Source of the DNA: Streptomyces canus 299MFChir4.1
GTDB lineage: Bacteria > Actinomycetota > Actinomycetes > Streptomycetales > Streptomycetaceae
Direction of reading: 5' to 3'
Length of the DNA: 64,000 nucleotides
Assembly: GCF_000383615.1 (NCBI RefSeq)
Contig: NZ_KB911583.1
Span: forward strand, 293,369 to 357,368
Within the stretch, counting starts at the first letter, position 1; every line of letters begins with the position of its first letter. A program made the position numbers and the translations under genes. The notes beneath the pieces were generated by a model. It was not told the origin of the DNA and searched no databases. It saw only the letters and a program-made list of their open reading frames with translations. Below, piece by piece: positions 9,832 to 60,595 of this stretch.

Positions 9832-10500
9832 TCAGCTTCCGGTGGGCCGCGCGGGGGTGGCCGGTGAGGTGGGTGCGGGGAGGGGGCGCCGGGCGACCTC
9901 ATGGGCGTCGTCCGGTGGGACGCCCAGCATGCGCAGGACCATCTCGGCGAGGTTCACCGCGGCCTTGTCACCGTCCAGGTCGGGGCGGGCGAATCTCATC
10001 TCCACCAGAGCCAGCAGGGTGCCGCCCAGTGCGGTCAGGGCGACCACTGGATCGAGGGGGGTGAAGCGGCCGGACGTGAGGCCCGCCTCGATGTCGCGCA
10101 GGGCTCGCCGGACCAGGCCGTTGTCCGAGTGGATGTGGCCGAGGCCGCGGCGGCGCAGGACCTGCATCAGCTCGGGGTGCGAGTCGGCCATGAGGGCGCT
10201 GAGTCGGAAGCCCGCCGCGACGAGTTCCGCAGGGTCGTCGATGCCCGCAAGGCGCTCGTCGAAGCTCTGGCCGTACTCTTCCATGGCGTCCACCACCGCC
10301 GCCTCGAACAGCTCCGTCTTGGAGTCGAAGTGGTTGTAGAAGGAGCCGAAGCCCACGTCGGCGCGCTCGGCGATCGCCTGGATGCTGGCGCTGGTGTCCC
10401 CGGTTTCGGCGAGTATCTGCCGGGCCGCTCGCACGAGAGCCCTGCGGGTCTCGGCGCGGCGCCGCTCGAACCGGTTGCTGGGTGGGGCTGACGTAGACAT
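9832..10500 (-). CDS. TetR-family regulator, divergent from P450 operon
   Basis: A 222-residue regulator. The helix-turn-helix is at about residues 12-57 (RRALVRAARQILAETG, then SIQAIAERADVGFGSFYNHF), followed by a helical effector domain and a Pro/Ala-rich tail after residue 200. The ATG at 10500 fits the family length. It is transcribed away from the P450-ferredoxin-reductase operon. The 502-base gap between them contains repeated TGATG(A/G) half-sites at 10540-10553, 10777-10790 and 10817-10853. By the usual TetR logic it would repress both itself and the P450 operon until a small substrate-like ligand binds. The ligand is unknown. Confidence 0.85.
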   Translation of the reverse strand: MSTSAPPSNRFERRRAETRRALVRAARQILAETGDTSASIQAIAERADVGFGSFYNHFDSKTELFEAAVVDAMEEYGQSFDERLAGIDDPAELVAAGFRLSALMADSHPELMQVLRRRGLGHIHSDNGLVRRALRDIEAGLTSGRFTPLDPVVALTALGGTLLALVEMRFARPDLDGDKAAVNLAEMVLRMLGVPPDDAHEVARRPLPAPTSPATPARPTGS

Positions 10501-10539
10501 GCGCCGATTGTAACCGCCGGGCGATGGCGATCGCAGTCC

Positions 10540-10553
10540 TGATGAATCCATCA
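10540..10553. promoter_or_regulatory. Operator-like inverted repeat near tetR start
   Basis: TGATG-AATC-CATCA is a perfect 5-base inverted repeat with a 4-base spacer, 40 bases upstream of the TetR start codon. The same half-site recurs in the P450 promoter, which suggests that the TetR protein binds both. Confidence 0.5.
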
Positions 10554-10776
10554 TATTCCCGCCGCGAGCACCCATGCCAGGGGGGCGACTTCGGGTTCCG
10601 ATCCGTAAGCCGGACGGCGCACCCGCCTCGACGTCCCGCCGTCGTCGAGGTCGTGAGGGCCACGTTTCGGCCGGGCGGAGGTCGTCCCGCTGCGTCCGGA
10701 CTGTGTCGTCCCGGACGTCATCCCCGTCGGAGGCCGTTACCTCACCGACACCGCTGTCTGTGAGTATCGGCAGTTC

Positions 10777-10853
10777 TGATGGTTTCATCGTTTTAATTCC
10801 GCCGTAACCCTTGACGCTTCATTCCATCAAGCTTGAGTATTTCATCATTACGA
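10777..10853 (+). promoter_or_regulatory. P450 operon promoter region with repeated half-sites
   Basis: A second copy of the operator motif, TGATG-GTTT-CATCG, lies at 10777-10790. A possible promoter follows, with TTGACG (10811-10816) and GAGTAT (10835-10840) 18 bases apart. Inside and just after that spacer, two more half-sites occur in inverted orientation (CATCA at 10825-10829 and CATCA at 10843-10847). Binding there would block RNA polymerase. The promoter call rests on consensus resemblance alone. Confidence 0.45.
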
Positions 10854-33441: not shown

Positions 33442-33475
33442 TGTCCGCGTGCTGTCCGTGGACAGCACGCGGACA
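33442..33475. repeat. Perfect 16-base inverted repeat
   Basis: TGTCCGCGTGCTGTCC and its exact complement GGACAGCACGCGGACA are separated by only two bases. It lies between the divergent cupin and GH2 genes, so it is not a terminator. It may be a cruciform or operator, or the footprint of a small mobile palindrome. Confidence 0.7.
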
Positions 33476-33509
33476 CTTGTCATGTCCCTGGACGGAAGCC
33501 GGAATCCGT

Positions 33510-33548
33510 GTTGTCATGCCAATTCCTGCCCATGACAACGTTGTTATG
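33510..33548. promoter_or_regulatory. LacI-type palindromic operator before GH2 gene
   Basis: CATGACAAC-GTTGTTATG (33531-33548) is an 18-base palindrome with one mismatched pair and a central CG, the usual LacI/GalR operator form. A further half-site GTTGTCATG (33510-33518) lies 12 bases upstream, facing it. The palindrome ends 10 bases before the GH2 start codon and covers part of the ribosome site, so a bound repressor would block expression. Confidence 0.6.
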
Positions 33549-33557
33549 GAGGCTTCT

Positions 33558-36161
33558 GTGCACAGCAGGCACCTCACCCGCCTCAGAGACCGGCTGGCCT
33601 TACTGGTCGCCGCCCTCCTCGGGCTCGCCGGTCTGACCGCGGTACCCGCCGTGGCCGACGATCCCGTCGAGGCCCGCGGACTCAAGGGCGAGTACTACAC
33701 CCAGTCCGCCCCCGGCGCCTTCGACTTCCACGAGCTCAAGGCCACCACCTTCGACCCGAACCTCGACTTCGACACCCTCGAACCCCGGCTCGCCGCCGCG
33801 ACCGGCCGCTCGGACGACATCAGTGTCCGCTGGACGGGCAGGCTCGTCCCGACGGCCTCCGGCCCCCACACCTTCTCCGTCATCGGCGACAACGGCTTCC
33901 GTCTGTGGATCGGCGGGCAGCTCCTCATCGACCACTGGGTCGACGACTGGAACCGCGAACAGACGGCGCAGCCCGTCGAGTTGACCGCCGGACAGTCCTA
34001 CGACATCAAGGTCGAGTACTTCGAGCACTACGGCGGCTCCAATCTCCACCTGCGCTGGGTACCGCCCGGCGGCACCAAGGAGGCCGTACCGCAGTGGGCG
34101 TTCCGGCTCCCCGACGGCTACGACTACGACGGCCCGATCGCGACCACCGTCCTCGGCACCGGCCGCACCCTGAAGCTCGACTTCGCCCAGCCGCTCGCGG
34201 CACCTCCGGCCGGTCTCACCGACCACCTCCAGGCCGTGATCGGCGGCGCCAAGTGGCCCCTGGGCGCGGCGAAACAGGACCCGCGGGACCCCCGTGCGCT
34301 GCTCGTCGCCCTCGCCGAACCCGTCGTGGGCAACAAGGCCGGCACCGCGCGCGGCACCGCCGACCTCCGCTACGACGGCGAAGGCGGGCTCACCAGCGCC
34401 GACGGCAACGTTGTCAACGCCTTCTGGAGCAGCGGCCCCAACCGCTCGACATACGAGCTGCGCACCAAGTGGGCCGACCAGGTGGGCCCCGGCAACGCCC
34501 ATCCCGAGTACCCGCGACCGCAGTTGACCCGTGACGAGTGGCAGAACCTCAACGGGCGCTGGCAGTTCGCCGCCGCCGAGGCGGGCGAACAGCCGCCGGT
34601 CGGCCGCACCCTCGCCGAGCGCATCCTCGTCCCCTACCCGGTCGAGTCCCAGCTCTCGGGTCTGGAACGGCACGAGGACCGCATGTGGTACCGCCGCACC
34701 TTCACCGTCCCGGCCGACTGGCACATCGGCTCCGGCAAGCGCCTGCGGCTCAACTTCGGGGCGGTCGACTGGCGGTCCGAGGTGTACGTCAACGGGACCA
34801 GGGTCGCCGAACACACCGGCGGCTACGACAAGTTCAGCGCCGACATCAGCGACGCGCTGAAGCCCGGCCGTACCCAGGAACTGATCGTCGGCGTGTACGA
34901 CCCCACCGACGCGGCCGACGGGGAGAACCCGCCCCTCGGCAAGCAGCGTCTCGACCCGAGCGGCATCTGGTACACCCCGTCCTCCGGCATCTGGCAGACC
35001 GTCTGGATGGAGCCCGTCGCCCGCGACCACGTCGACTCCCTCAAGCTCACCCCGGACGTCTCCACCAACCGTCTGACGGTCGAGGCACAGGGCGTCCGCG
35101 ACGGCGTACCGGTCGCGGCGACGGCGTACGACGGCAAGCGGAAGGTCGCCACGGCCCGCGGCCGGACCGGTGAGCCACTGACCCTGACCATCGAGAAGCC
35201 GCGCCTGTGGTCGCCCGACGACCCGTTCCTGTACGACCTGAAGGTGACCGTCGGCGCCGACCGCGTCGGCGGCTACTTCGGGATGCGCTCCATCGCCGTC
35301 GAGAACGTGAACGGCACCCCGCGCACGGTCCTCAATGGTCAGCCGGTCTTCATGATGGCCACCCTCGACCAGGGCTTCTGGCCCGACGGGCTGCACACCG
35401 CACCCACCGACGAGGCCCTCGCGTACGACCTGAGGGTGCACAAGCGGCTCGGCTTCAACGCCGTGCGCAAGCACATCAAGGTCGAGCCCGACCGCTGGTT
35501 CTACTGGGCCGACCGGCTGGGCCTGATGGTGTGGCAGGACATGCCCGCCATGACCGCGGGGGTGAATCCGAGCCCCACCGCCCGCGCGGAGTACGAGCGC
35601 GAGATGAAACAGATGATCGACGAACACATCAGCAGTCCGTCGGTCGTCATGTGGGTGACCTTCAACGAGGGCTGGGGGCAGTACGACGTCGGCCGGATCG
35701 CCGAGCAGGCCAAGGCCTGGGACCCGACCCGCCTGGTCAACAACCAGTCGGGGCTCAACCTCGGCGCCGACGGCAACGCCGGCGACATCATGGACGAGCA
35801 CGGCTATCCCAGTCCCGCTCTGCCACCCCACCCGGACGGCAGACGTGCCCTGGTCAGCGGCGAGTACGGCGGGCTCGGCCTGGCGGTGCCCGGACACGCG
35901 TGGTCGGTCCAGCAGTCGTACGTCGACGTCGATCCGGCGACCTACACCGACGACTATCTGTCCAGACTCGACGAGGTACGGGCGCTGGCCTGCCGCGGCG
36001 GCAACGCGGCCGTCTACACCCAGATCTCGGACGTCGAGGGTGAGCTGAACGGGCTGCTCACCTACGACCGCAAGGTCCTGAAACCGGACGTCGAACGGGT
36101 CAGGGCCGCACACCAGGGCCTCATCCGGGACGCGTCCCGGACGACTCCGGCAGGGTGTTGA
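33558..36161 (+). CDS. Secreted glycoside hydrolase family 2 with PA14 domain
   Basis: An 867-residue secreted glycosidase. A signal peptide (residues 1-33, ending AVPAVADDP) is followed by a PA14 carbohydrate-binding domain at about 42-165. A GH2 sugar-binding domain begins near 317 (PQLTRDEWQNLNGRW), then immunoglobulin-like and TIM-barrel domains. The acid/base Glu704 is in TFNEGWGQYD and the nucleophile Glu769 in SGEYGG. Specificity (galactoside, glucuronide or mannoside) is not clear from sequence. The GTG at 33558 follows GGAGG at ideal spacing. Codon 15 is the rare TTA (33600-33602), so translation depends on the bldA tRNA. A LacI-type palindrome precedes it. Confidence 0.88.
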   Translation: MHSRHLTRLRDRLALLVAALLGLAGLTAVPAVADDPVEARGLKGEYYTQSAPGAFDFHELKATTFDPNLDFDTLEPRLAAATGRSDDISVRWTGRLVPTASGPHTFSVIGDNGFRLWIGGQLLIDHWVDDWNREQTAQPVELTAGQSYDIKVEYFEHYGGSNLHLRWVPPGGTKEAVPQWAFRLPDGYDYDGPIATTVLGTGRTLKLDFAQPLAAPPAGLTDHLQAVIGGAKWPLGAAKQDPRDPRALLVALAEPVVGNKAGTARGTADLRYDGEGGLTSADGNVVNAFWSSGPNRSTYELRTKWADQVGPGNAHPEYPRPQLTRDEWQNLNGRWQFAAAEAGEQPPVGRTLAERILVPYPVESQLSGLERHEDRMWYRRTFTVPADWHIGSGKRLRLNFGAVDWRSEVYVNGTRVAEHTGGYDKFSADISDALKPGRTQELIVGVYDPTDAADGENPPLGKQRLDPSGIWYTPSSGIWQTVWMEPVARDHVDSLKLTPDVSTNRLTVEAQGVRDGVPVAATAYDGKRKVATARGRTGEPLTLTIEKPRLWSPDDPFLYDLKVTVGADRVGGYFGMRSIAVENVNGTPRTVLNGQPVFMMATLDQGFWPDGLHTAPTDEALAYDLRVHKRLGFNAVRKHIKVEPDRWFYWADRLGLMVWQDMPAMTAGVNPSPTARAEYEREMKQMIDEHISSPSVVMWVTFNEGWGQYDVGRIAEQAKAWDPTRLVNNQSGLNLGADGNAGDIMDEHGYPSPALPPHPDGRRALVSGEYGGLGLAVPGHAWSVQQSYVDVDPATYTDDYLSRLDEVRALACRGGNAAVYTQISDVEGELNGLLTYDRKVLKPDVERVRAAHQGLIRDASRTTPAGC

Positions 36162-53052: not shown

Positions 53053-54111
53053 TCATCGTAGCGGCTGCGCCCCACGGGCAACGCCCGTGCTGTCCCGCAC
53101 GATCAACCGCGGCACCGGCACCCGGACCGTCCGCGCCGGCCCCCCGTCCAGCAGCGCCGTCAGTTCCCTGGCCGCCGTGCGGCCGAACTCGACGCTGTCC
53201 CGGGACAGGGCCGACAGCCAGGGCTTGACCATGCGGCACAGTGCCGAGTCCTCCCAGGCCACCACCGACACGTCCGCGGGGACCGATTGGCCCAGTTCGG
53301 TCGCGGCGGCTACTCCGGCGAGGGCCATCACGTCGTTGTCGTAGATCAGCGCGGTCGGGGGAGCGGACGCCTCCAGGACCCGGCGGGTCACGGCCGCGCC
53401 CGCCGCGTCGGAGTAGTCGGTGGTCACCGACTTCACCCCGGTCAGCCCGCGCCGCCCGGCCTCCGCGCGCAGGGTGCGGATGCGGCGCTCGGTGTGGGCG
53501 AGCCCCGGCAGGCCCGCGATGTGCACGATCCGCCGGTGGCCGAGCGCGTACAGCTCGTCCACGACCGCGGCCATCGCGCCCGCGTCGTCCGCCCAGACGG
53601 TCGACAGCCCGGGATGGCGCTCGTCGGGGGCGCCGCCGATCACGACCCCGGGCAGGCCCAGTTCGTCGAGAACCCCGGTGCGGGGGTCGTCGGTTCGCGG
53701 GTCGACCACCAGGACGCCGTCCACCCGGTGTTCGGCCCACCAGCGCCGGTACACCGCGCACTCGTCCTCGATGTCCTCCACCACCTGGAACAGCAGCCCG
53801 AGATGACGCTCCGCCAGCACCTCCTGTATCCCCGAGACGAGTTGGAGGAAGAAGGAGTCGACGCCGAGCGTCTCGGCGGGGCGGGCCAGGACGAAGCCGA
53901 CCGTGGCGGCACCCTCGCCGGACAGTGCGCGGGCCGCGGTGCTGGGGCGCCAGCCGAGTTCCTCGGCGACCTGCCGCACCCGGTCGCGGGTGTCCTCGGA
54001 GACCCCGGGCCGGCCGTTCAGCGCGAAGGAGACCGCGCTCTGGGAGACCCCGGCCCGCCGCGCGATGTCCTTCATCGTGGGCCTGCGGGCCGGGGTCCTC
54101 TTGCCTGACAC
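53053..54111 (-). CDS. LacI-family regulator of the N-glycan operon
   Basis: A 352-residue repressor. The helix-turn-helix and hinge cover about residues 13-66 (TMKDIARRAGVSQSAVSFAL, with the LacI hinge helix near RPSTAARALSG). The periplasmic-binding-like effector domain follows (IYDNDVMALAGVAAATELG; VVAWEDSALCRM). The GTG at 54111 has GGGGAAA upstream. It is divergent from the sugar ABC operon, with CTAATG..CATTAG operators between them, so it very likely represses that operon and itself until a glycan-derived sugar binds. Its stop overlaps the upstream start option of the TRYPCO1 gene, linking the conflict module to this regulator. Confidence 0.88.
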   Translation of the reverse strand: MSGKRTPARRPTMKDIARRAGVSQSAVSFALNGRPGVSEDTRDRVRQVAEELGWRPSTAARALSGEGAATVGFVLARPAETLGVDSFFLQLVSGIQEVLAERHLGLLFQVVEDIEDECAVYRRWWAEHRVDGVLVVDPRTDDPRTGVLDELGLPGVVIGGAPDERHPGLSTVWADDAGAMAAVVDELYALGHRRIVHIAGLPGLAHTERRIRTLRAEAGRRGLTGVKSVTTDYSDAAGAAVTRRVLEASAPPTALIYDNDVMALAGVAAATELGQSVPADVSVVAWEDSALCRMVKPWLSALSRDSVEFGRTAARELTALLDGGPARTVRVPVPRLIVRDSTGVARGAQPLR

Positions 54112-54154
54112 GCTGTTTCCCCAATTCCGCGACGGTCGATGGGCCCAGAATGTA

Positions 54155-54208
54155 CTAATGCGGTTCAGCTGCGTCAACCTAATGCGCATTAGTCACTAAA
54201 CACATTAG
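54155..54208. promoter_or_regulatory. LacI operators between lacI and sugar ABC operon
   Basis: CTAATGCGCATTAG (54179-54192) is a perfect 14-base palindrome with a central CG. CTAATGCGGTTCAG (54155-54168) and CTAAACACATTAG (54196-54208) are weaker copies on either side. Three sites within 54 bases of the divergent promoter region fit cooperative repression by the neighbouring LacI protein. Confidence 0.7.
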
Positions 54209-54295
54209 CTGTGCGAGATGCATTGACGGGCCTGTGGAGTGGCGTGCAGGGTCTCCGTCGTTGGCCACCTCCGCCGCGAAGGAGAACGGTTCGCC

Positions 54296-55582
54296 GTGCC
54301 CATTTCCCGCAGAACCCTCGCTGCCGCCGCCGTCTGTGTCGTCCTGCCGCTGAGCGGCTGCGGCTCCGGCGACGACAGCGGTTCGAGCGACGCCTCCGGC
54401 AAGATCGAGGGTGACATCACCTTCCAGACCTGGAATCTCAGGGCGAACTTCAAGGACTACTTCGAGGGCCTGATCGCCGACTTCGAGAAGAAGTACCCGG
54501 GCACCGAGGTGAAGTGGATCGACCAGCCCGCCGAGGGTTATGCCGACAAGATCAGCGCCGATGCCGCGGGCGGCACCCTGCCCGACGTCGTCAACGTGTC
54601 CCCGGACCTGGTCGCGCCCCTCGCCAAGGCGGGCCTCGCGCTCGACCTCGACAAGGCGGCCGGACAGTACAGGAGGGAGTACCTGGACGGCGCCTGGGCC
54701 AGCCATCAGATACCGGGCATGACCGGCACGTACGCCTTCCCCTGGTACCTCAACACCGGCCCGCTCTTCTACAACAAGTCGCTCTTCGAGGAGGCCGGAC
54801 TGGACCCCGACCAGCCGCCGAAGACGTACGACGAACTCTTCACCGACGCCCTGGAGCTGGCGAAGAAGAGCGACGGCAAGGTCGCCACCCTCGCCAACGT
54901 GCCCACCATCGAGGACTTCGGCCGCTACGGCGTCCCGCTCATGAACTCCGAGGGCACCGCCTTCGCCTTCAACGACGCCAAGGGCATCGAACTCCTCACC
55001 AGGTACAAGAAGTTGTACGACGCCAAGGCACTCGACCCGCAGGCGCTGACCGCCACACCCGAGTCGTCCGGCAAGAAATTCCTCACCGGGGCCGTCGCCA
55101 TGAATCCCGGGAGCGCCCTGGACCTCGGCAACTTCAAGAAGCAGGCGCCGAACCTGTACAAGAACATCGGCATCACCGACCAGATCACCAGCACCGGGCA
55201 CGTCAACATGTACGTGATGGGCGTGATGGTGAACGCGCAGACCAAGAAGAAGGCGGCCTCCGTCGCCTTCGCGCACTACGTCACCGACGCCGAGCACCAG
55301 ATGTCCTTCGCGAAGAAGGTCGCGATCTTCCCGAGCACCGCGGGATCTCTGGACGACCCGTACTTCACCAAGGAGGACGGGACGGACGAGACACGGGTGC
55401 GGATCGCCGCCGCCAAGTCCCTGAAGAACGCGGTCAATTACACGCCCGTGCTGTTCAGCGAGCAGATGAAGACGGCACTGCGCAACGAGGTCGCCAAGGC
55501 GTTGCAGGGCAAGGAGAGCCCCGAGGAAGCCCTCGACAACGCTGTCAAGGCGTGTGACACGCTGCTGCGGCAGCAGGGATAG
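54296..55582 (+). CDS. ABC sugar transporter, substrate-binding lipoprotein
   Basis: A 428-residue lipoprotein of the family-1 extracellular solute-binding proteins. The signal has RR near the start and lipobox LSGC (Cys near residue 22), so it is anchored outside the membrane. Binding-protein features are ITFQTWNLRANFKDYFEGL, FEKKYPGTEVKWID, LPDVVNVSPDLVAPLAKAG, and FPWYLNTGPLFYNKSLFEEA. The GTG at 54296 is used. It starts the operon; the permease follows after two bases. The likely ligand is an oligosaccharide released from N-glycans, judged from the downstream enzymes. Confidence 0.9.
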   Translation: MPISRRTLAAAAVCVVLPLSGCGSGDDSGSSDASGKIEGDITFQTWNLRANFKDYFEGLIADFEKKYPGTEVKWIDQPAEGYADKISADAAGGTLPDVVNVSPDLVAPLAKAGLALDLDKAAGQYRREYLDGAWASHQIPGMTGTYAFPWYLNTGPLFYNKSLFEEAGLDPDQPPKTYDELFTDALELAKKSDGKVATLANVPTIEDFGRYGVPLMNSEGTAFAFNDAKGIELLTRYKKLYDAKALDPQALTATPESSGKKFLTGAVAMNPGSALDLGNFKKQAPNLYKNIGITDQITSTGHVNMYVMGVMVNAQTKKKAASVAFAHYVTDAEHQMSFAKKVAIFPSTAGSLDDPYFTKEDGTDETRVRIAAAKSLKNAVNYTPVLFSEQMKTALRNEVAKALQGKESPEEALDNAVKACDTLLRQQG

Positions 55583-55584
55583 GC

Positions 55585-56481
55585 ATGTCGTCGTCCCCCA
55601 CCGTGTCCCGGGTGCGGCGTCAATGGCCGCTGAGTCCCTGGCTGCTCGCCGCACCCGGGCTGCTGATCATCGGCGCGTTCATCCTGTACCCGTTCGTCTC
55701 CACGCTGGTCAACGCCTTCACCGACAAGCGCACCCTGATCCCCGGCGAGTTCGTCGGCCTCGCGAACTTCCGTGAGCTGCTGCACGACGACATGTTCTGG
55801 ATCGGGCTGCGCAACAGCACGCTGTACGTCCTCGGAGTCGTGCCCGCGCTCGTGATCCTGCCGCTGCTGCTCGCGCTGCTGGTCCAGAAGAACATCCCCG
55901 GCATCACCTTCTTCCGGTCCGCCCTCTACACCCCGGTCGTCGCGTCGATCGTCGTGGTCGGACTCATCTGGGTCTGGCTCCTCGACGAACGCGGCCTGAT
56001 CAACTCGCTGTTGGAGGCCGTCGGGGTCGGCCGGGTCGGTTTCCTGAGCGACCAGTGGCTGCTCCTGCTGAGCGCCATGGCGGTCACGGTGTGGAAGGGC
56101 CTGGGCTACTACATGATCATTTACCTGGCCGCGCTGGCCAACGTGCCGCGTGAGCTGCACGAGGCCGCCGCGGTGGACGGGGCGGGTGCCGTCCGGCGGT
56201 TCGTCACGGTGACGGTGCCCGCCGTCCGATCGACGATGGCACTCGTCGGGGCGCTGTCCTCGGTCGCCGCCTTCAAGGTGTTCTCCGAGGTCTACCTGAT
56301 GGCCGGCCCGAGCGGCGGACCGGCCGGCGAGGACACCACGCTCGTGATGCTCGTCCAGCGCACCGGCACCGGACTGACCGGCCGGGTCGGCTACGCCTCC
56401 GCGATCTCGGTCGTCGTGTTCGTCGTCACCGTCGCGCTGATGCTGCTCGTGCTGCGGGCCGATCGGAGGGCGGAGACATGA
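55585..56481 (+). CDS. ABC sugar transporter, permease 1 (MalF-like)
   Basis: A 298-residue membrane protein with six transmembrane helices. The N-terminal WLLAAPGLLIIGAFILYPF is typical for MalF/UgpA-type permeases, and the cytoplasmic EAA loop reads ELHEAAAVDGAGAVRRFVTV. It overlaps the second permease by four bases (ATGA). No ATPase is encoded in the operon; in Streptomyces a shared MsiK ATPase usually serves such importers. Confidence 0.92.
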   Translation: MSSSPTVSRVRRQWPLSPWLLAAPGLLIIGAFILYPFVSTLVNAFTDKRTLIPGEFVGLANFRELLHDDMFWIGLRNSTLYVLGVVPALVILPLLLALLVQKNIPGITFFRSALYTPVVASIVVVGLIWVWLLDERGLINSLLEAVGVGRVGFLSDQWLLLLSAMAVTVWKGLGYYMIIYLAALANVPRELHEAAAVDGAGAVRRFVTVTVPAVRSTMALVGALSSVAAFKVFSEVYLMAGPSGGPAGEDTTLVMLVQRTGTGLTGRVGYASAISVVVFVVTVALMLLVLRADRRAET

Positions 56482-57311
56482 CCACCCGCGTCCGTAAGGG
56501 CGAACTGCTGCTGAGATACGTCCTGTTGCTCGCCGTCCTCGCCCTGACCATCGGCCCCTTCCTCTGGCAGCTGTCGACCTCGCTCAAGGGCCCCACGGAG
56601 GACATCTACAGCTCGCCGCCGTCCTTCCTCCCCCGGCATCCGACCCTGCACAACTACGAGCGGGTCGCCGACACCATCCCCGTCTGGGACTACGCCTTCA
56701 ACTCGCTGAAGGTCGCCACCGCCAACGTCGTGACCAACTGCGCCGGTTCGGCACTCGCCGGCTACGCCCTGGCCCGACTGCGCTACCGCGGCCGCCGGGC
56801 GGCCACCCTCGCCTTCGTCCTGGCGATGCTCGTGCCCGTGGAGGGCATCATCATCGCCCAGTTCACCACCATGCGGGAGCTCGGCCTCAACAACACCCTG
56901 GTCGGCGTGGTCCTGCCGGGCTGCGTCGGCGCCATGAACGTCCTGCTGATGCGCAACGCCTTCCTCAACCTGCCGTACGAGATCGAGGAGGCCGCCTACG
57001 TCGACGGCGCCAACGTCTGGCAGCGGTTCCTGCGGATCGCGCTGCCGTCGGTGAAGGGGACGGTGGCCGTCGTCGCGATCTTCGCCTTCATGGGCGCCTG
57101 GGACGACTTCCTGTGGCCGCTGATCGTGCTGAGCGACCCGTCGAAGTTCACACTGACCATCGGCCTCAACTATCTGCACGGCACCTTCGCAGGCGACGAA
57201 CGGCTCGTCGCCGCGGGCACGGTCATCGCCGTGGCCCCGCTGATCGCCCTCTTCGCCGGCCTCCAGCGGTACTTCTTCCGCGGGGTGGGCGAGGGGGCGG
57301 TGAAGGGCTGA
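56478..57311 (+). CDS. ABC sugar transporter, permease 2 (MalG-like)
   Basis: A 277-residue permease with six helices. The EAA loop is EIEEAAYVDGANVWQRFLRI, and the start VLLLAVLALTIGPFLWQLST matches MalG/UgpE proteins. It pairs with the preceding permease to form the membrane channel. Confidence 0.92.
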   Translation: MTTRVRKGELLLRYVLLLAVLALTIGPFLWQLSTSLKGPTEDIYSSPPSFLPRHPTLHNYERVADTIPVWDYAFNSLKVATANVVTNCAGSALAGYALARLRYRGRRAATLAFVLAMLVPVEGIIIAQFTTMRELGLNNTLVGVVLPGCVGAMNVLLMRNAFLNLPYEIEEAAYVDGANVWQRFLRIALPSVKGTVAVVAIFAFMGAWDDFLWPLIVLSDPSKFTLTIGLNYLHGTFAGDERLVAAGTVIAVAPLIALFAGLQRYFFRGVGEGAVKG

Positions 57312-57342
57312 ATCCCAGCCCCGCGTCTGACAAGGACTCCGC

Positions 57343-58590
57343 ATGCCTGCTGCCGTGCGCTTCGGCGTCAACTACACCCCGAGCGTCGGATGGTTCCACC
57401 ACTGGCTCGACTTCGACCTGGACGCCGTCCGCGCCGACCTCGACTCGATCGCCGCCCTGGGCCTCGACCACATCCGGGTCTTCCCGCTGTGGCCGTACTT
57501 CCAGCCGAACCGCACCCTGATCCGGGAGCGTGCCGTCACGGATCTCGTACGGCTCGTCGACGCCGCCGCCGAGCGCGGTCTCGACGTCAACGTGGACGGT
57601 CTGCAAGGGCACCTGAGCAGCTTCGACTTCCTGCCGGCCTGGACGAGGACCTGGCACCGCCGCAACCTCTTCACCGACCCGGAGGTCATCGAAGGCCAGG
57701 CCGCCTATCTGCGCACGCTGGCGGCGGCGCTGGCGGACAGCCCCGCCTTCCTCGGCATGACCCTCGGCAACGAGGTCAACCAGTTCTCCGCGGCGCCCCA
57801 TCCCGACCCCGACCCGGCCACGTCCGGGCAGATCGACGCCTGGCTCACCCGCATGCTGGCCGCCTGTGAGGAAGGGGCGCCCGGGCGGCTGCACCTGCAC
57901 GCCGAGTACGACGCCACCTGGTACCAGGACGACCAGCCCTTCACCCCCGCCCAGGCCGCCCGCCACGGCGCTGTCACCGCCGTGCACTCCTGGGTCTTCA
58001 ACGGCACCGCCCAGCGCCACGGCCGCACCTCCGTCCAGAGCGAGCACCACGCGGCCTACCTCGTCGAGCTGAGCAAGGCCTGGGCCGAGGACCCGCACCG
58101 GCCGGTCTGGCTCCAGGAGGTCGGCGCGCCCGCGCCGCTGGTCCCGCCCGAGCACGCCGCCGCCTTCACCGAGGCGACCGTGGCCAACGTCCTGGACTGT
58201 CCCGACCTGTGGGGCGTCACCTGGTGGTGTTCCCACGACGTGTCCCGGGACCTGGCCGACTTCCCCGAACTGGAGTACGGACTGGGCCTGTTGACCAACG
58301 ACCGGCAACCGAAGGACACGGCCCGGGTGCTGGAGCGGGCGGCACGCGCCGGCTCCACCGCTCCGGAACGGCGTACGACAGCCCTGGTCGTCCCCGCCGA
58401 CCCCGGCTCCCGCTCGCTGTGCGCGCCCGGCGGCCCGGTCTACGAGGCCTACTTCCGGCTGGTCGCGGACGGCGCCCGCCCCACCACCGTCCTCGACACC
58501 CGTGCCGCCGACCGGGAGCACCTGTCCGCGCGCGGGATCACCGAGGTCGTCACCTCCGATCAGGTACTCCCACCCCACCAGGACCACTAG
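57343..58590 (+). CDS. GH5_18-like beta-mannosidase (intracellular)
   Basis: A 415-residue TIM-barrel enzyme without a signal peptide, so cytoplasmic. The barrel opens FGVNYTPSVGWFHHWLDFD and continues LDHIRVFPLWPYFQPN. The acid/base Glu144 is in LGNEVNQF and the nucleophile Glu259 in WLQEVGAP. The pattern fits the GH5 subfamily 18, whose characterised members in bifidobacteria cleave the Man-beta-1,4-GlcNAc core of N-glycans. Its place between the importer and GH85/GH38 enzymes supports that activity, making mannose and GlcNAc available inside the cell. Confidence 0.8.
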   Translation: MPAAVRFGVNYTPSVGWFHHWLDFDLDAVRADLDSIAALGLDHIRVFPLWPYFQPNRTLIRERAVTDLVRLVDAAAERGLDVNVDGLQGHLSSFDFLPAWTRTWHRRNLFTDPEVIEGQAAYLRTLAAALADSPAFLGMTLGNEVNQFSAAPHPDPDPATSGQIDAWLTRMLAACEEGAPGRLHLHAEYDATWYQDDQPFTPAQAARHGAVTAVHSWVFNGTAQRHGRTSVQSEHHAAYLVELSKAWAEDPHRPVWLQEVGAPAPLVPPEHAAAFTEATVANVLDCPDLWGVTWWCSHDVSRDLADFPELEYGLGLLTNDRQPKDTARVLERAARAGSTAPERRTTALVVPADPGSRSLCAPGGPVYEAYFRLVADGARPTTVLDTRAADREHLSARGITEVVTSDQVLPPHQDH

Positions 58591-58603
58591 GAGGCACCCG
58601 CTC

Positions 58604-60595
58604 GTGAACCCCACCAGACGCACGGTTCTGCTCGCCGCGACCGCGGCGGCGGTGCTGCCCGCGCTGCCCGCGAAGGCGGCGACGGCGACCGCGCTCCAGC
58701 CGTACGCCACCTACTGGTACCCGGACTCCCTGCCCTCCGGCAGCCCCGGCCCCGGCATCACCTGGCGCAGCCTCAAGGCGTGGCGGGCGGCCGACGACGC
58801 AGACCTCGCCTTCAACGCGGCCTCCGTGCCGCTCGCCGCCCGCTTCACCCCGACGCCCGCGAACCCGACGGCACGCGCGGGCCAGGCCCGCATCCAGTCG
58901 CTGGTCTCCTTCGGGCCCACGGCGGGCAACCCCTCGCAGGGCTCGGCGACCTCCGACTACTACGCCTTCGGGCACTGGGCCTACGTCGACGAACTGGTCT
59001 TCTGGGGCGGCTCGTCCGGCGAAGGGCTGATCCTCGCGCCGAACGCCCCGATCGTGGACGCGGCCCACCGCCACGGCGTGCCCGTCCTCGGCAACGTCTT
59101 CCTGCCGCCGGTCGCCTACGGCGGACAGCTGCGGTGGACGCGTGACCTGGTGCAGAAGGACGCGGCCGGCCGGTACCCACTGGCGGCTCAACTCGTCGCG
59201 GTCGCCACGGCGTACGGCTTCGACGGATGGTTCGTCAACGCGGAGACCGGCGGAGGGGACGCCGCGCTCGGGGCGGACATGCTCGGATTCGTACGGGAGT
59301 TGAAGTCCCTCTCCGCCGCGAAGGGACAGCGGGTCACCTGGTACGACTCGATGACCGTGAACGGGACGGTGAGCTGGCAGGGCGCGCTGAACAGCCGCAA
59401 CCAGGCGTTCTTCGAGACCGCGGACGACCTGTTCGTCGACTTCCGGTGGACGGCGGCCGGTCTGGCGTCCTCGGGCACGCTGGCCCGGCAACTGGGTCGC
59501 AGCCGCTACGCGTTGTGGGCGGGCCTGGACGTGGAGGCGGGCGGCTGGAACACGTCCGAGAACTGGGACGCGATCGTGCCCCGGGACCGGGCCCATGTGA
59601 CCTCGATCGGGCTGTACCGGCCGGAGTGGACCCGCAACCACCTGCCCTCGGACCAGCGGGCACCGGAGAACTTCCACGCGGCCGACGACCGTTTCTGGAC
59701 GGGGGTGTCCCTCGATCCCTCACGGCCGGACGAGACGGACGGCTGGCGGGCTCCGGCGGTGTCGGTCGCGGACCGGTCGACGGTCACCGCGCTGCCGTTC
59801 GCGAGCGTGTTCAACACCGGCCACGGGCTGCGGTGGTACGAGGAGGGGGCCGTCACGTCGGAGACGGCGTGGAACCACCTCGGGCTGCAGGACCGGCTGC
59901 CGTCGCGGCGGTGGGTGGTGCGGACGGACGGATCGCGGCCGGCCGTCTCCTTCGACTTCGCGGACGCCTGGCGGGGCGGCAGCAGCGTGCTCGCGGCCGG
60001 TGCGCTGGACGCGCCGGTCACGGTGGACCTGTACACGGCCCGGCTGCCGATCAGCGGTGACACGGTGGTCGAGCTCACCCACCGGACGGACGAGGGCGAG
60101 GTGGGCGTCGAGCTCGCCGTGGCCACCGCGGAGCCGGGCGCGCCGGGGGCGACACCGCCGTACACCTTTCTCCCGGTGACCACCGGTGACGGCTGGCGGA
60201 CCTCGACCGTACGGCTCACCGGCCTCGCCGGGTCCGTCCACGCACTCGGAGTACGGCTCACCGGCACCGGGCCGGTGAAGTGGCGGCTCGGCGGACTCGC
60301 CGTGTACGACACGCGCCGCACCCCCTGCCCGCCCTCCGGGCTGCGCGTCACCGCGGCCTCGGGCGGCGACCTGCGTCTGGCCTGGAACCCCGCACCCGGC
60401 GCCGTGCGCCACTACACCCTGCACCGGCTCCTGCCCGACGGCAGCCGGCGCTTCCTCGGCGGCACTTGCCAGCGGGCCTGGTTCGTCGCCGGCCTCCGGC
60501 CCGAACAGGGCGAGCGGCAGGCACGGTTGGAGCTGCGTGCCGTGGGGGAGCTGTACACCTCGTCGGACCCTGTGACCGTCACCCATCCCTGGTGA
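58604..60595 (+). CDS. Secreted GH85 endo-beta-N-acetylglucosaminidase
   Basis: A 663-residue secreted enzyme. A signal with two arginines (TRRTVLLAATAAAVLPALPA) is followed by the GH85 barrel. The catalytic Asn212-x-Glu214 pair is in DGWFVNAETGG, as in EndoA-like enzymes, with QPYATYWYPDSLPSGSPGPG and RNQAFFETADDLFVDFRWT nearby. Beta-sandwich domains close the protein, ending near a fibronectin-like segment (CPPSGLRVTAASGGDLRLAW). It cuts between the two core GlcNAc residues of N-linked glycans. The GTG at 58604 follows AGGAGG. Confidence 0.88.
   Translation: MNPTRRTVLLAATAAAVLPALPAKAATATALQPYATYWYPDSLPSGSPGPGITWRSLKAWRAADDADLAFNAASVPLAARFTPTPANPTARAGQARIQSLVSFGPTAGNPSQGSATSDYYAFGHWAYVDELVFWGGSSGEGLILAPNAPIVDAAHRHGVPVLGNVFLPPVAYGGQLRWTRDLVQKDAAGRYPLAAQLVAVATAYGFDGWFVNAETGGGDAALGADMLGFVRELKSLSAAKGQRVTWYDSMTVNGTVSWQGALNSRNQAFFETADDLFVDFRWTAAGLASSGTLARQLGRSRYALWAGLDVEAGGWNTSENWDAIVPRDRAHVTSIGLYRPEWTRNHLPSDQRAPENFHAADDRFWTGVSLDPSRPDETDGWRAPAVSVADRSTVTALPFASVFNTGHGLRWYEEGAVTSETAWNHLGLQDRLPSRRWVVRTDGSRPAVSFDFADAWRGGSSVLAAGALDAPVTVDLYTARLPISGDTVVELTHRTDEGEVGVELAVATAEPGAPGATPPYTFLPVTTGDGWRTSTVRLTGLAGSVHALGVRLTGTGPVKWRLGGLAVYDTRRTPCPPSGLRVTAASGGDLRLAWNPAPGAVRHYTLHRLLPDGSRRFLGGTCQRAWFVAGLRPEQGERQARLELRAVGELYTSSDPVTVTHPW

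What the first reader, a model, noticed from the sequence alone, without database searches (positions are those of the whole stretch)
33510..33602. GH2 gene under both LacI-type and bldA (TTA) control
CATGACAACGTTGTTATG sits right before the start, and codon 15 in the signal peptide is the rare leucine codon TTA. Sugar induction and developmental timing would thus both limit this secreted glycosidase. The operator differs from CTAATGCGCATTAG of the local LacI, so another LacI protein should act.
Basis: partly seen in the sequence, partly recalled or inferred. Interest (0 to 1): 0.5.

Follow-up and report, generated by a model that had tools for sequence, protein, structure and literature searches.

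The report
LacI-controlled, TTA-tagged fungal-glycan enzyme gene
A soil Streptomyces gene for a secreted enzyme that probably trims galactofuranose off fungal cell-wall sugar has a conserved repressor site between its promoter and its start and a rare developmental TTA codon in its export signal, a combination already proposed for two Streptomyces cellulose-degrading genes, so it is a good new example rather than a new kind of control.

Summary
Confirmed: CATGACAACGTTGTTATG (33531-33548) directly precedes the Shine-Dalgarno and GTG start (33558) of a PA14-GH2 gene, and codon 15 in the signal peptide is TTA. The nearest solved structure is a beta-D-galactofuranosidase, so the gene is probably a PA14-type Galf-ase.

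The "other LacI" is probably a LacI gene on contig 4. Its own promoter carries the same 12-bp core (TGACAACGTTGT), present in 46 of 46 orthologue loci examined. In this genome and 6 others the exact core recurs at LacI/ROK kinase and at a solute-binding protein/GH92 pair (7 of 7 each), and at this GH2 in 4 of 7. That looks like a regulon for fungal galactomannan/alpha-mannan.

TTA is patchy: 14 of 16 TTA codons in 67 orthologues (58,416 codons) fall at this one column, in 12 of 14 genes whose operator abuts the ribosome site but 2 of 53 with a longer leader. Some close relatives lack it, and its codon identity alone is no proof of selection. bldA dependence is plausible, not shown.

CebR-box plus early-TTA control of secreted Streptomyces hydrolases has been proposed in print (PMC5332605). 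New member of a known kind.

The parts
33489..33494 (+). probable -35 element TGGACG
   Evidence: TGGACG in 13 of 13 aligned short-leader genes, TGGACA in the long-leader consensus; 17 nt before the -10. The consensus scan called no promoter here.
33512..33517 (+). probable -10 element TGTCAT
   Evidence: TGTCAT in 12 of 13 aligned short-leader genes (TGTTAT in L135), also in the long-leader consensus
33531..33548 (+). LacI-type operator CATGACAACGTTGTTATG, probably just downstream of the transcription start
   Evidence: conserved in orthologues; same core before a LacI gene and GH92 genes
33548..33552 (+). Shine-Dalgarno GGAGG, sharing one base with the operator
33558..36161 (+). secreted PA14-GH2 glycosidase, probably beta-D-galactofuranosidase
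   Evidence: Pfam PA14 and GH2; nearest solved structure beta-D-galactofuranosidase 9j6n, E 5e-173; NE at 703-704 and E769 aligned
33558..33656 (+). signal peptide MHSRHLTRLRDRLALLVAALLGLAGLTAVPAVA
   Evidence: read by eye: basic start, leucine-rich core, AVA before DD; no signal-peptide program was run
33600..33602 (+). TTA leucine codon (codon 15)
   Evidence: column occupied by TTA in 14 of 67 orthologues, the window's gene included

Best explanation
The gene encodes a secreted PA14-type beta-D-galactofuranosidase in a LacI regulon for fungal galactomannan/alpha-mannan. Transcription probably starts near 33524 from TGGACG-17-TGTCAT. The LacI protein of contig 4 (next to a ROK sugar kinase) binds TGACAACGTTGTTA between that start and the ribosome site and blocks transcription until a breakdown sugar (mannose, a mannoside or galactose; identity inferred) releases it. 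Where TTA is present, the mRNA also needs the bldA tRNA at codon 15, so that full synthesis would await later growth. Shown: site, codon, gene families, recurrence of the site at LacI and GH92 genes. Inferred: binding, effector, promoter, enzyme specificity, bldA limitation.
For: With up to 1 mismatch, TGACAACGTTGTYA has 6 places in the 10.48-Mb genome and the reversed control none. Three lie before or between likely starts: this GH2, LacI/ROK, SBP/GH92. A second GH92 gene has two imperfect sites 45 bp apart. The LacI is found in 112 of 121 genomes, own included, counted as best E below 1e-150. TGACAACGTTGTC is before it in 30 of 30 and 16 of 16 loci examined. In 6 other genomes, chosen by me from the 12 with a GH2 match of 70% or more, the exact 12-mer sits at LacI/ROK 6 of 6, SBP/GH92a 6 of 6, GH2 3 of 6. 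Before GH92a it also lies 6-14 bases upstream of a GGGAGGG in 7 of 7 printed loci. TTA: 14 of 16 in one column; tRNA-Leu(TAA) gene present. Galf-ase.
Against: No binding or expression data. Many GH2 orthologues carry CCAACGTTGTACA, or in the S. violaceorubidus group ACATCGATGT, while the LacI site in the same genomes stays TGACAACGTTGTCC and the recognition helix is unchanged: either the repressor tolerates variants or another protein acts there. Among 11 TTA orthologues, 11 of 55 invariant Leu columns keep one codon, so TTA identity alone is not exceptional. TTA is absent despite the operator in L135 (= L261), L136 (= L246), L253, L258, L260 and L266. The promoter scan found nothing. The reversed-pattern control is weak, and several exact sites lie in coding sequence or at genes I could not tie to this pathway.
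Confidence: 0.6

Rival explanations
1. Only the LacI layer is real; the TTA is an accidental, AT-leaning codon near the start (eased ribosome loading or drift) and does not limit expression.
For: TTA is missing in close relatives (TTG in L258). The same column also holds CTA 7 and CTT 6 times in 67 genes. 11 of 55 invariant Leu columns keep one codon anyway. LacI, ROK, SBP (the part held), both GH92 and GH27 of this genome lack TTA.
Against: 14 of 16 TTAs of 67 orthologues lie in one column, with at least 5 changes on a quick tree; accidents should scatter more.
Confidence: 0.45
2. A different, paralogous LacI protein than that of contig 4 controls this gene.
For: The genome has 48 LacI-type HTH hits. 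The GH2 operator drifts in other species while the contig-4 LacI site does not.
Against: Of 24 LacI genes whose HTH my script could place (30 loci fetched of 48 hits), only the contig-4 one has CAWCGWTG in its upstream 450 bp; the other 24 hits were not examined this way. No place lies within 1 kb of another hit.
Confidence: 0.15
3. The palindrome is not an operator but a chance or RNA-level element at the ribosome site.
For: It touches the SD and no binding was shown.
Against: The site occurs at LacI and GH92 promoters in several genomes. In long-leader orthologues the palindrome core stays near the promoter, away from the SD.
Confidence: 0.05

Closest known systems
CebR box plus early TTA in S. 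scabies scab51081 and celS2, and txtR (PMC5332605, passages read)
   Same: 14-bp repressor box (CebR as a LacI-family protein is recalled) upstream of secreted enzymes that also have TTA at nucleotide 13 or 22; the authors call both possible bldA targets and propose combined CebR and bldA control for txtR
   Different: other operator (TGGGAGCGCTCCCA), cellulose-related enzymes, box at -54 or -177 instead of touching the SD
PA14-type beta-D-galactofuranosidase ORF0643 of Streptomyces sp. JHA26 (PMC5391426, whole text)
   Same: GH2 enzyme with N-terminal PA14 domain; that domain is reported important for activity on Aspergillus fumigatus galactomannan
   Different: its regulation is not treated there; its sequence was not compared here
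Beta-D-galactofuranosidase 2, PDB 9j6n/9j6m (9J6M placed in GH2_18 and cited to Streptomyces sp. JHA19 in PMC12243196, passages)
   Same: nearest solved GH2 core, aligned over query 300-865
   Different: the alignment fills most of that chain (32-606 of 612) and starts after the window protein's PA14 domain

Membership tests
LacI-family operator | CG-centred palindrome at the promoter | tested here: met
   33531-33548, 8 of 9 arm positions pair, next to a conserved promoter-like pair
LacI-family operator | same site at the regulator's own gene and at functionally linked genes | tested here: met
LacI-family operator | bound by a LacI protein and relieved by a sugar | not testable with these tools
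   needs gel shift and expression work
bldA target gene | in-frame TTA in the coding sequence | tested here: met
   33600-33602, codon 15
bldA target gene | tRNA-Leu(UAA) gene in the genome | tested here: met
   L240, anticodon taa
bldA target gene | TTA conserved in orthologues | tested here: inconclusive
   14 of 67; 14 of 20 GH2 loci with operator and SD adjacent, partly the same genes
bldA target gene | expression lost in a bldA mutant | not testable with these tools
   no experiment
PA14-type beta-D-galactofuranosidase | PA14 plus GH2 domains, nearest solved kin a Galf-ase | tested here: met
PA14-type beta-D-galactofuranosidase | activity on galactofuranosides | not testable with these tools
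   needs an enzyme assay

The most novel reading that the evidence does not exclude
One LacI repressor governs a scattered Streptomyces regulon for fungal galactomannan (galactofuranosidase, GH92 mannosidases, uptake, ROK kinase). In one lineage a compact 5' cassette (operator touching the ribosome site, TTA in the signal peptide) has been gained and lost as a unit, so that closely related species differ naturally in whether the enzyme is bldA-gated.
Probability: 0.3. Interest if true: 0.55.

Novelty: new member of a known kind. Interest (0 to 1): 0.38.

Why it matters
It gives a probable regulator and regulon for Streptomyces PA14-type galactofuranosidases, enzymes of interest against fungal galactomannan. 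Searches of open-access papers for the motif and for a LacI regulator of such enzymes gave nothing on point; of the 13 papers listed I read one. The patchy TTA among closely similar genes offers a natural test of whether early TTA codons really gate secreted hydrolases.

Tried and rejected
A conserved hairpin hiding the ribosome site in long-leader orthologues: no supported structure (46 of the 53 long-leader genes, consensus -2.6, mean z -0.43 against mononucleotide shuffles). Co-evolution of regulator and site in the ACATCGATGT group: rejected, LacI site and recognition helix unchanged. The 34-bp inverted repeat at 33442-33475 as a genomic repeat family: besides itself only 2 places with 3 mismatches, while the control pattern gave 3. 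TTA kept by selection, judged from codon identity alone: not supported.

Dropped rows: from 69 near loci (L007-L062, L067, L070, L135-L145), L053 and L056 (truncated) and L058 (no core found by the script; its start region does show operator and TTA) were left out; with the window's gene this makes the 67 genes. L010/L137 and L049/L144 are identical over the tree's columns. L063-L066, L068, L069, L071-L083, L085 and L086 are more distant homologues (46-54% identity) and L084 is partial; none was counted. L146 and later loci were not used. Of 36 match rows, 30 had loci and went into; the control gave 5 rows in 295 genomes.

Full report
Observation. The start GTG 33558 has an SD at 33548-33552, and orthologues have an SD-like stretch and a start at the matching place; the scripts preferred starts with an SD. 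The nearest named homologues are Streptomyces (best 93% identity, L067).

The enzyme. Pfam gives PA14 and GH2 domains. The best solved relative is beta-D-galactofuranosidase 9j6n (580.7 bits, aligned over 300-865). By general knowledge of GH2, the catalytic pair would be E704 (NE motif) and E769; both are aligned with E in 9j6n. A PA14-type Galf-ase from Streptomyces sp. JHA26 is described whose PA14 domain matters for action on A. fumigatus galactomannan (PMC5391426, whole text). Assignment to this type is by homology.

The regulator. With up to one mismatch the motif has six places in the genome. Besides this gene, one lies at the divergent LacI / ROK kinase pair (contig 4), with a GH27 gene next to ROK, and one between a solute-binding protein gene and a GH92 gene (contig 21). 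Of the other three, C10 (L003) and C13 (L004) were not assigned to genes. C45 (L006) lies inside long ORFs, and the similar regulator-like ORF of G032 also has the site inside it (L186). The two-mismatch scan has 27 places against 9 for the control, so a good part of those is noise; two of them, 45 bp apart, lie before a second GH92 gene.

Comparative test. The LacI is present in 112 of 121 genomes (best E below 1e-150, my count). Its promoter carries TGACAACGTTGTCC in 30 of 30 best-scoring loci, own included, and in 15 of 16 genomes of GH2-bearing loci that I chose, the sixteenth having TGACAACGTTGTCT; the two sets may share species. In six other genomes (G001, G007, G011, G024, G027, G032; 6 of the 12 with GH2 at 70% or more) the exact 12-mer gave 32 rows, 0 in the reversed control. 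Of 30 loci, LacI/ROK is found in 6 of 6 genomes, SBP/GH92a in 6 of 6 (SBP 36-86% identical), GH2 in 3 of 6, GH92b-like genes (41-45% identical) in 2 of 6. The rest lie inside coding sequence or near other genes; in G027 and G032 two look-alike secreted proteins have the site near their likely start (by eye). Two rows had no locus. In G024 a GH92 gene beside a glgC-like gene has, by eye, the same promoter-operator stretch as GH2 genes.

Anatomy. In 13 aligned short-leader genes TGGACG (13 of 13), TGTCAT (12 of 13) and ATGACAACGTT (12 of 13) are conserved, suggesting a promoter TGGACG-17-TGTCAT and an operator downstream of the start of transcription. The consensus scanner finds no promoter at its thresholds, so this rests on conservation. 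In the long-leader group (52 genes aligned) the consensus keeps CCAACGTTGTACA at the promoter and the SD lies further downstream.

The TTA. In 67 orthologues (65 different on the tree), 58,416 codons, there are 16 TTA codons; 14 are in the column of codon 15. Twelve of 14 short-leader genes and 2 of 53 long-leader genes have it. On a quick tree without the signal peptide, TTA needs at least 5 changes and the leader type 3; independent pairs are too few for significance (3). In 295 genus genomes the operator-plus-SD 21-mer with up to 3 mismatches hits 34; the control gave 5 rows. Of 30 loci, 20 are GH2 genes, among them 16 of 16 with at most 1 mismatch. The script counted 13 with TTA; L262, with a TTG start, also has it on reading, making 14 of 20, partly the same genes as above. 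L258 has TTG at that column. The link between leader type and TTA may simply reflect physical closeness. Codon identity among 11 TTA genes is not exceptional.

Known precedents. S. scabies scab51081 and celS2 combine a CebR box with TTA at nucleotides 13 and 22, and txtR combines CebR control with TTA (PMC5332605, passages). In S. coelicolor 147 genes carry TTA, and nearly all genes influenced by bldA in that study lack a TTA, so that those effects were judged indirect (PMC2000904, passages); this calls for caution about the developmental claim.

Verdict. A well-supported LacI operator with a named candidate repressor and probable regulon, plus a TTA codon whose effect is open. New member of a known kind.

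Noticed in passing
33442-33475: 34-bp inverted repeat with 16-bp perfect arms and a 2-bp loop, the longest of three in the window with arms of 12 bp or more and loops up to 4; lies between the cupin gene and this promoter; no good second copy in the genome.
   Followed up: partly
L013 and other long-leader loci, upstream of GH2: A conserved stretch CGAGCCGCCACCCTTCCTC between operator and SD in the long-leader consensus; no supported hairpin. Function unexplained.
   Followed up: partly
L204 1-1684 (minus strand): In G024 a GH92 gene, not GH2, follows a glgC-like gene with the same promoter-operator stretch by eye.
   Followed up: no
L011, L017, L019, L061, L062 upstream of GH2: One or two ACATCGATGT-like palindromes in place of ACAACGTTGT, while the LacI gene keeps its own site.
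   Followed up: partly
L192 and L201: Two look-alike secreted proteins in G032 and G027 with the exact 12-mer near their likely start (by eye): possible further regulon members of unknown function.
   Followed up: no
9832-10788 (minus strand): The only other TTA among 41 GC3-called ORFs of the window, codon 61 from the ORF start; gene call uncertain.
   Followed up: no
53053-60595: GH85 (endo-beta-N-acetylglucosaminidase) gene with two transporter permease genes, a LacI gene and the site CTAATGCGCATTAG: a second possible glycan locus under another LacI.
   Followed up: no
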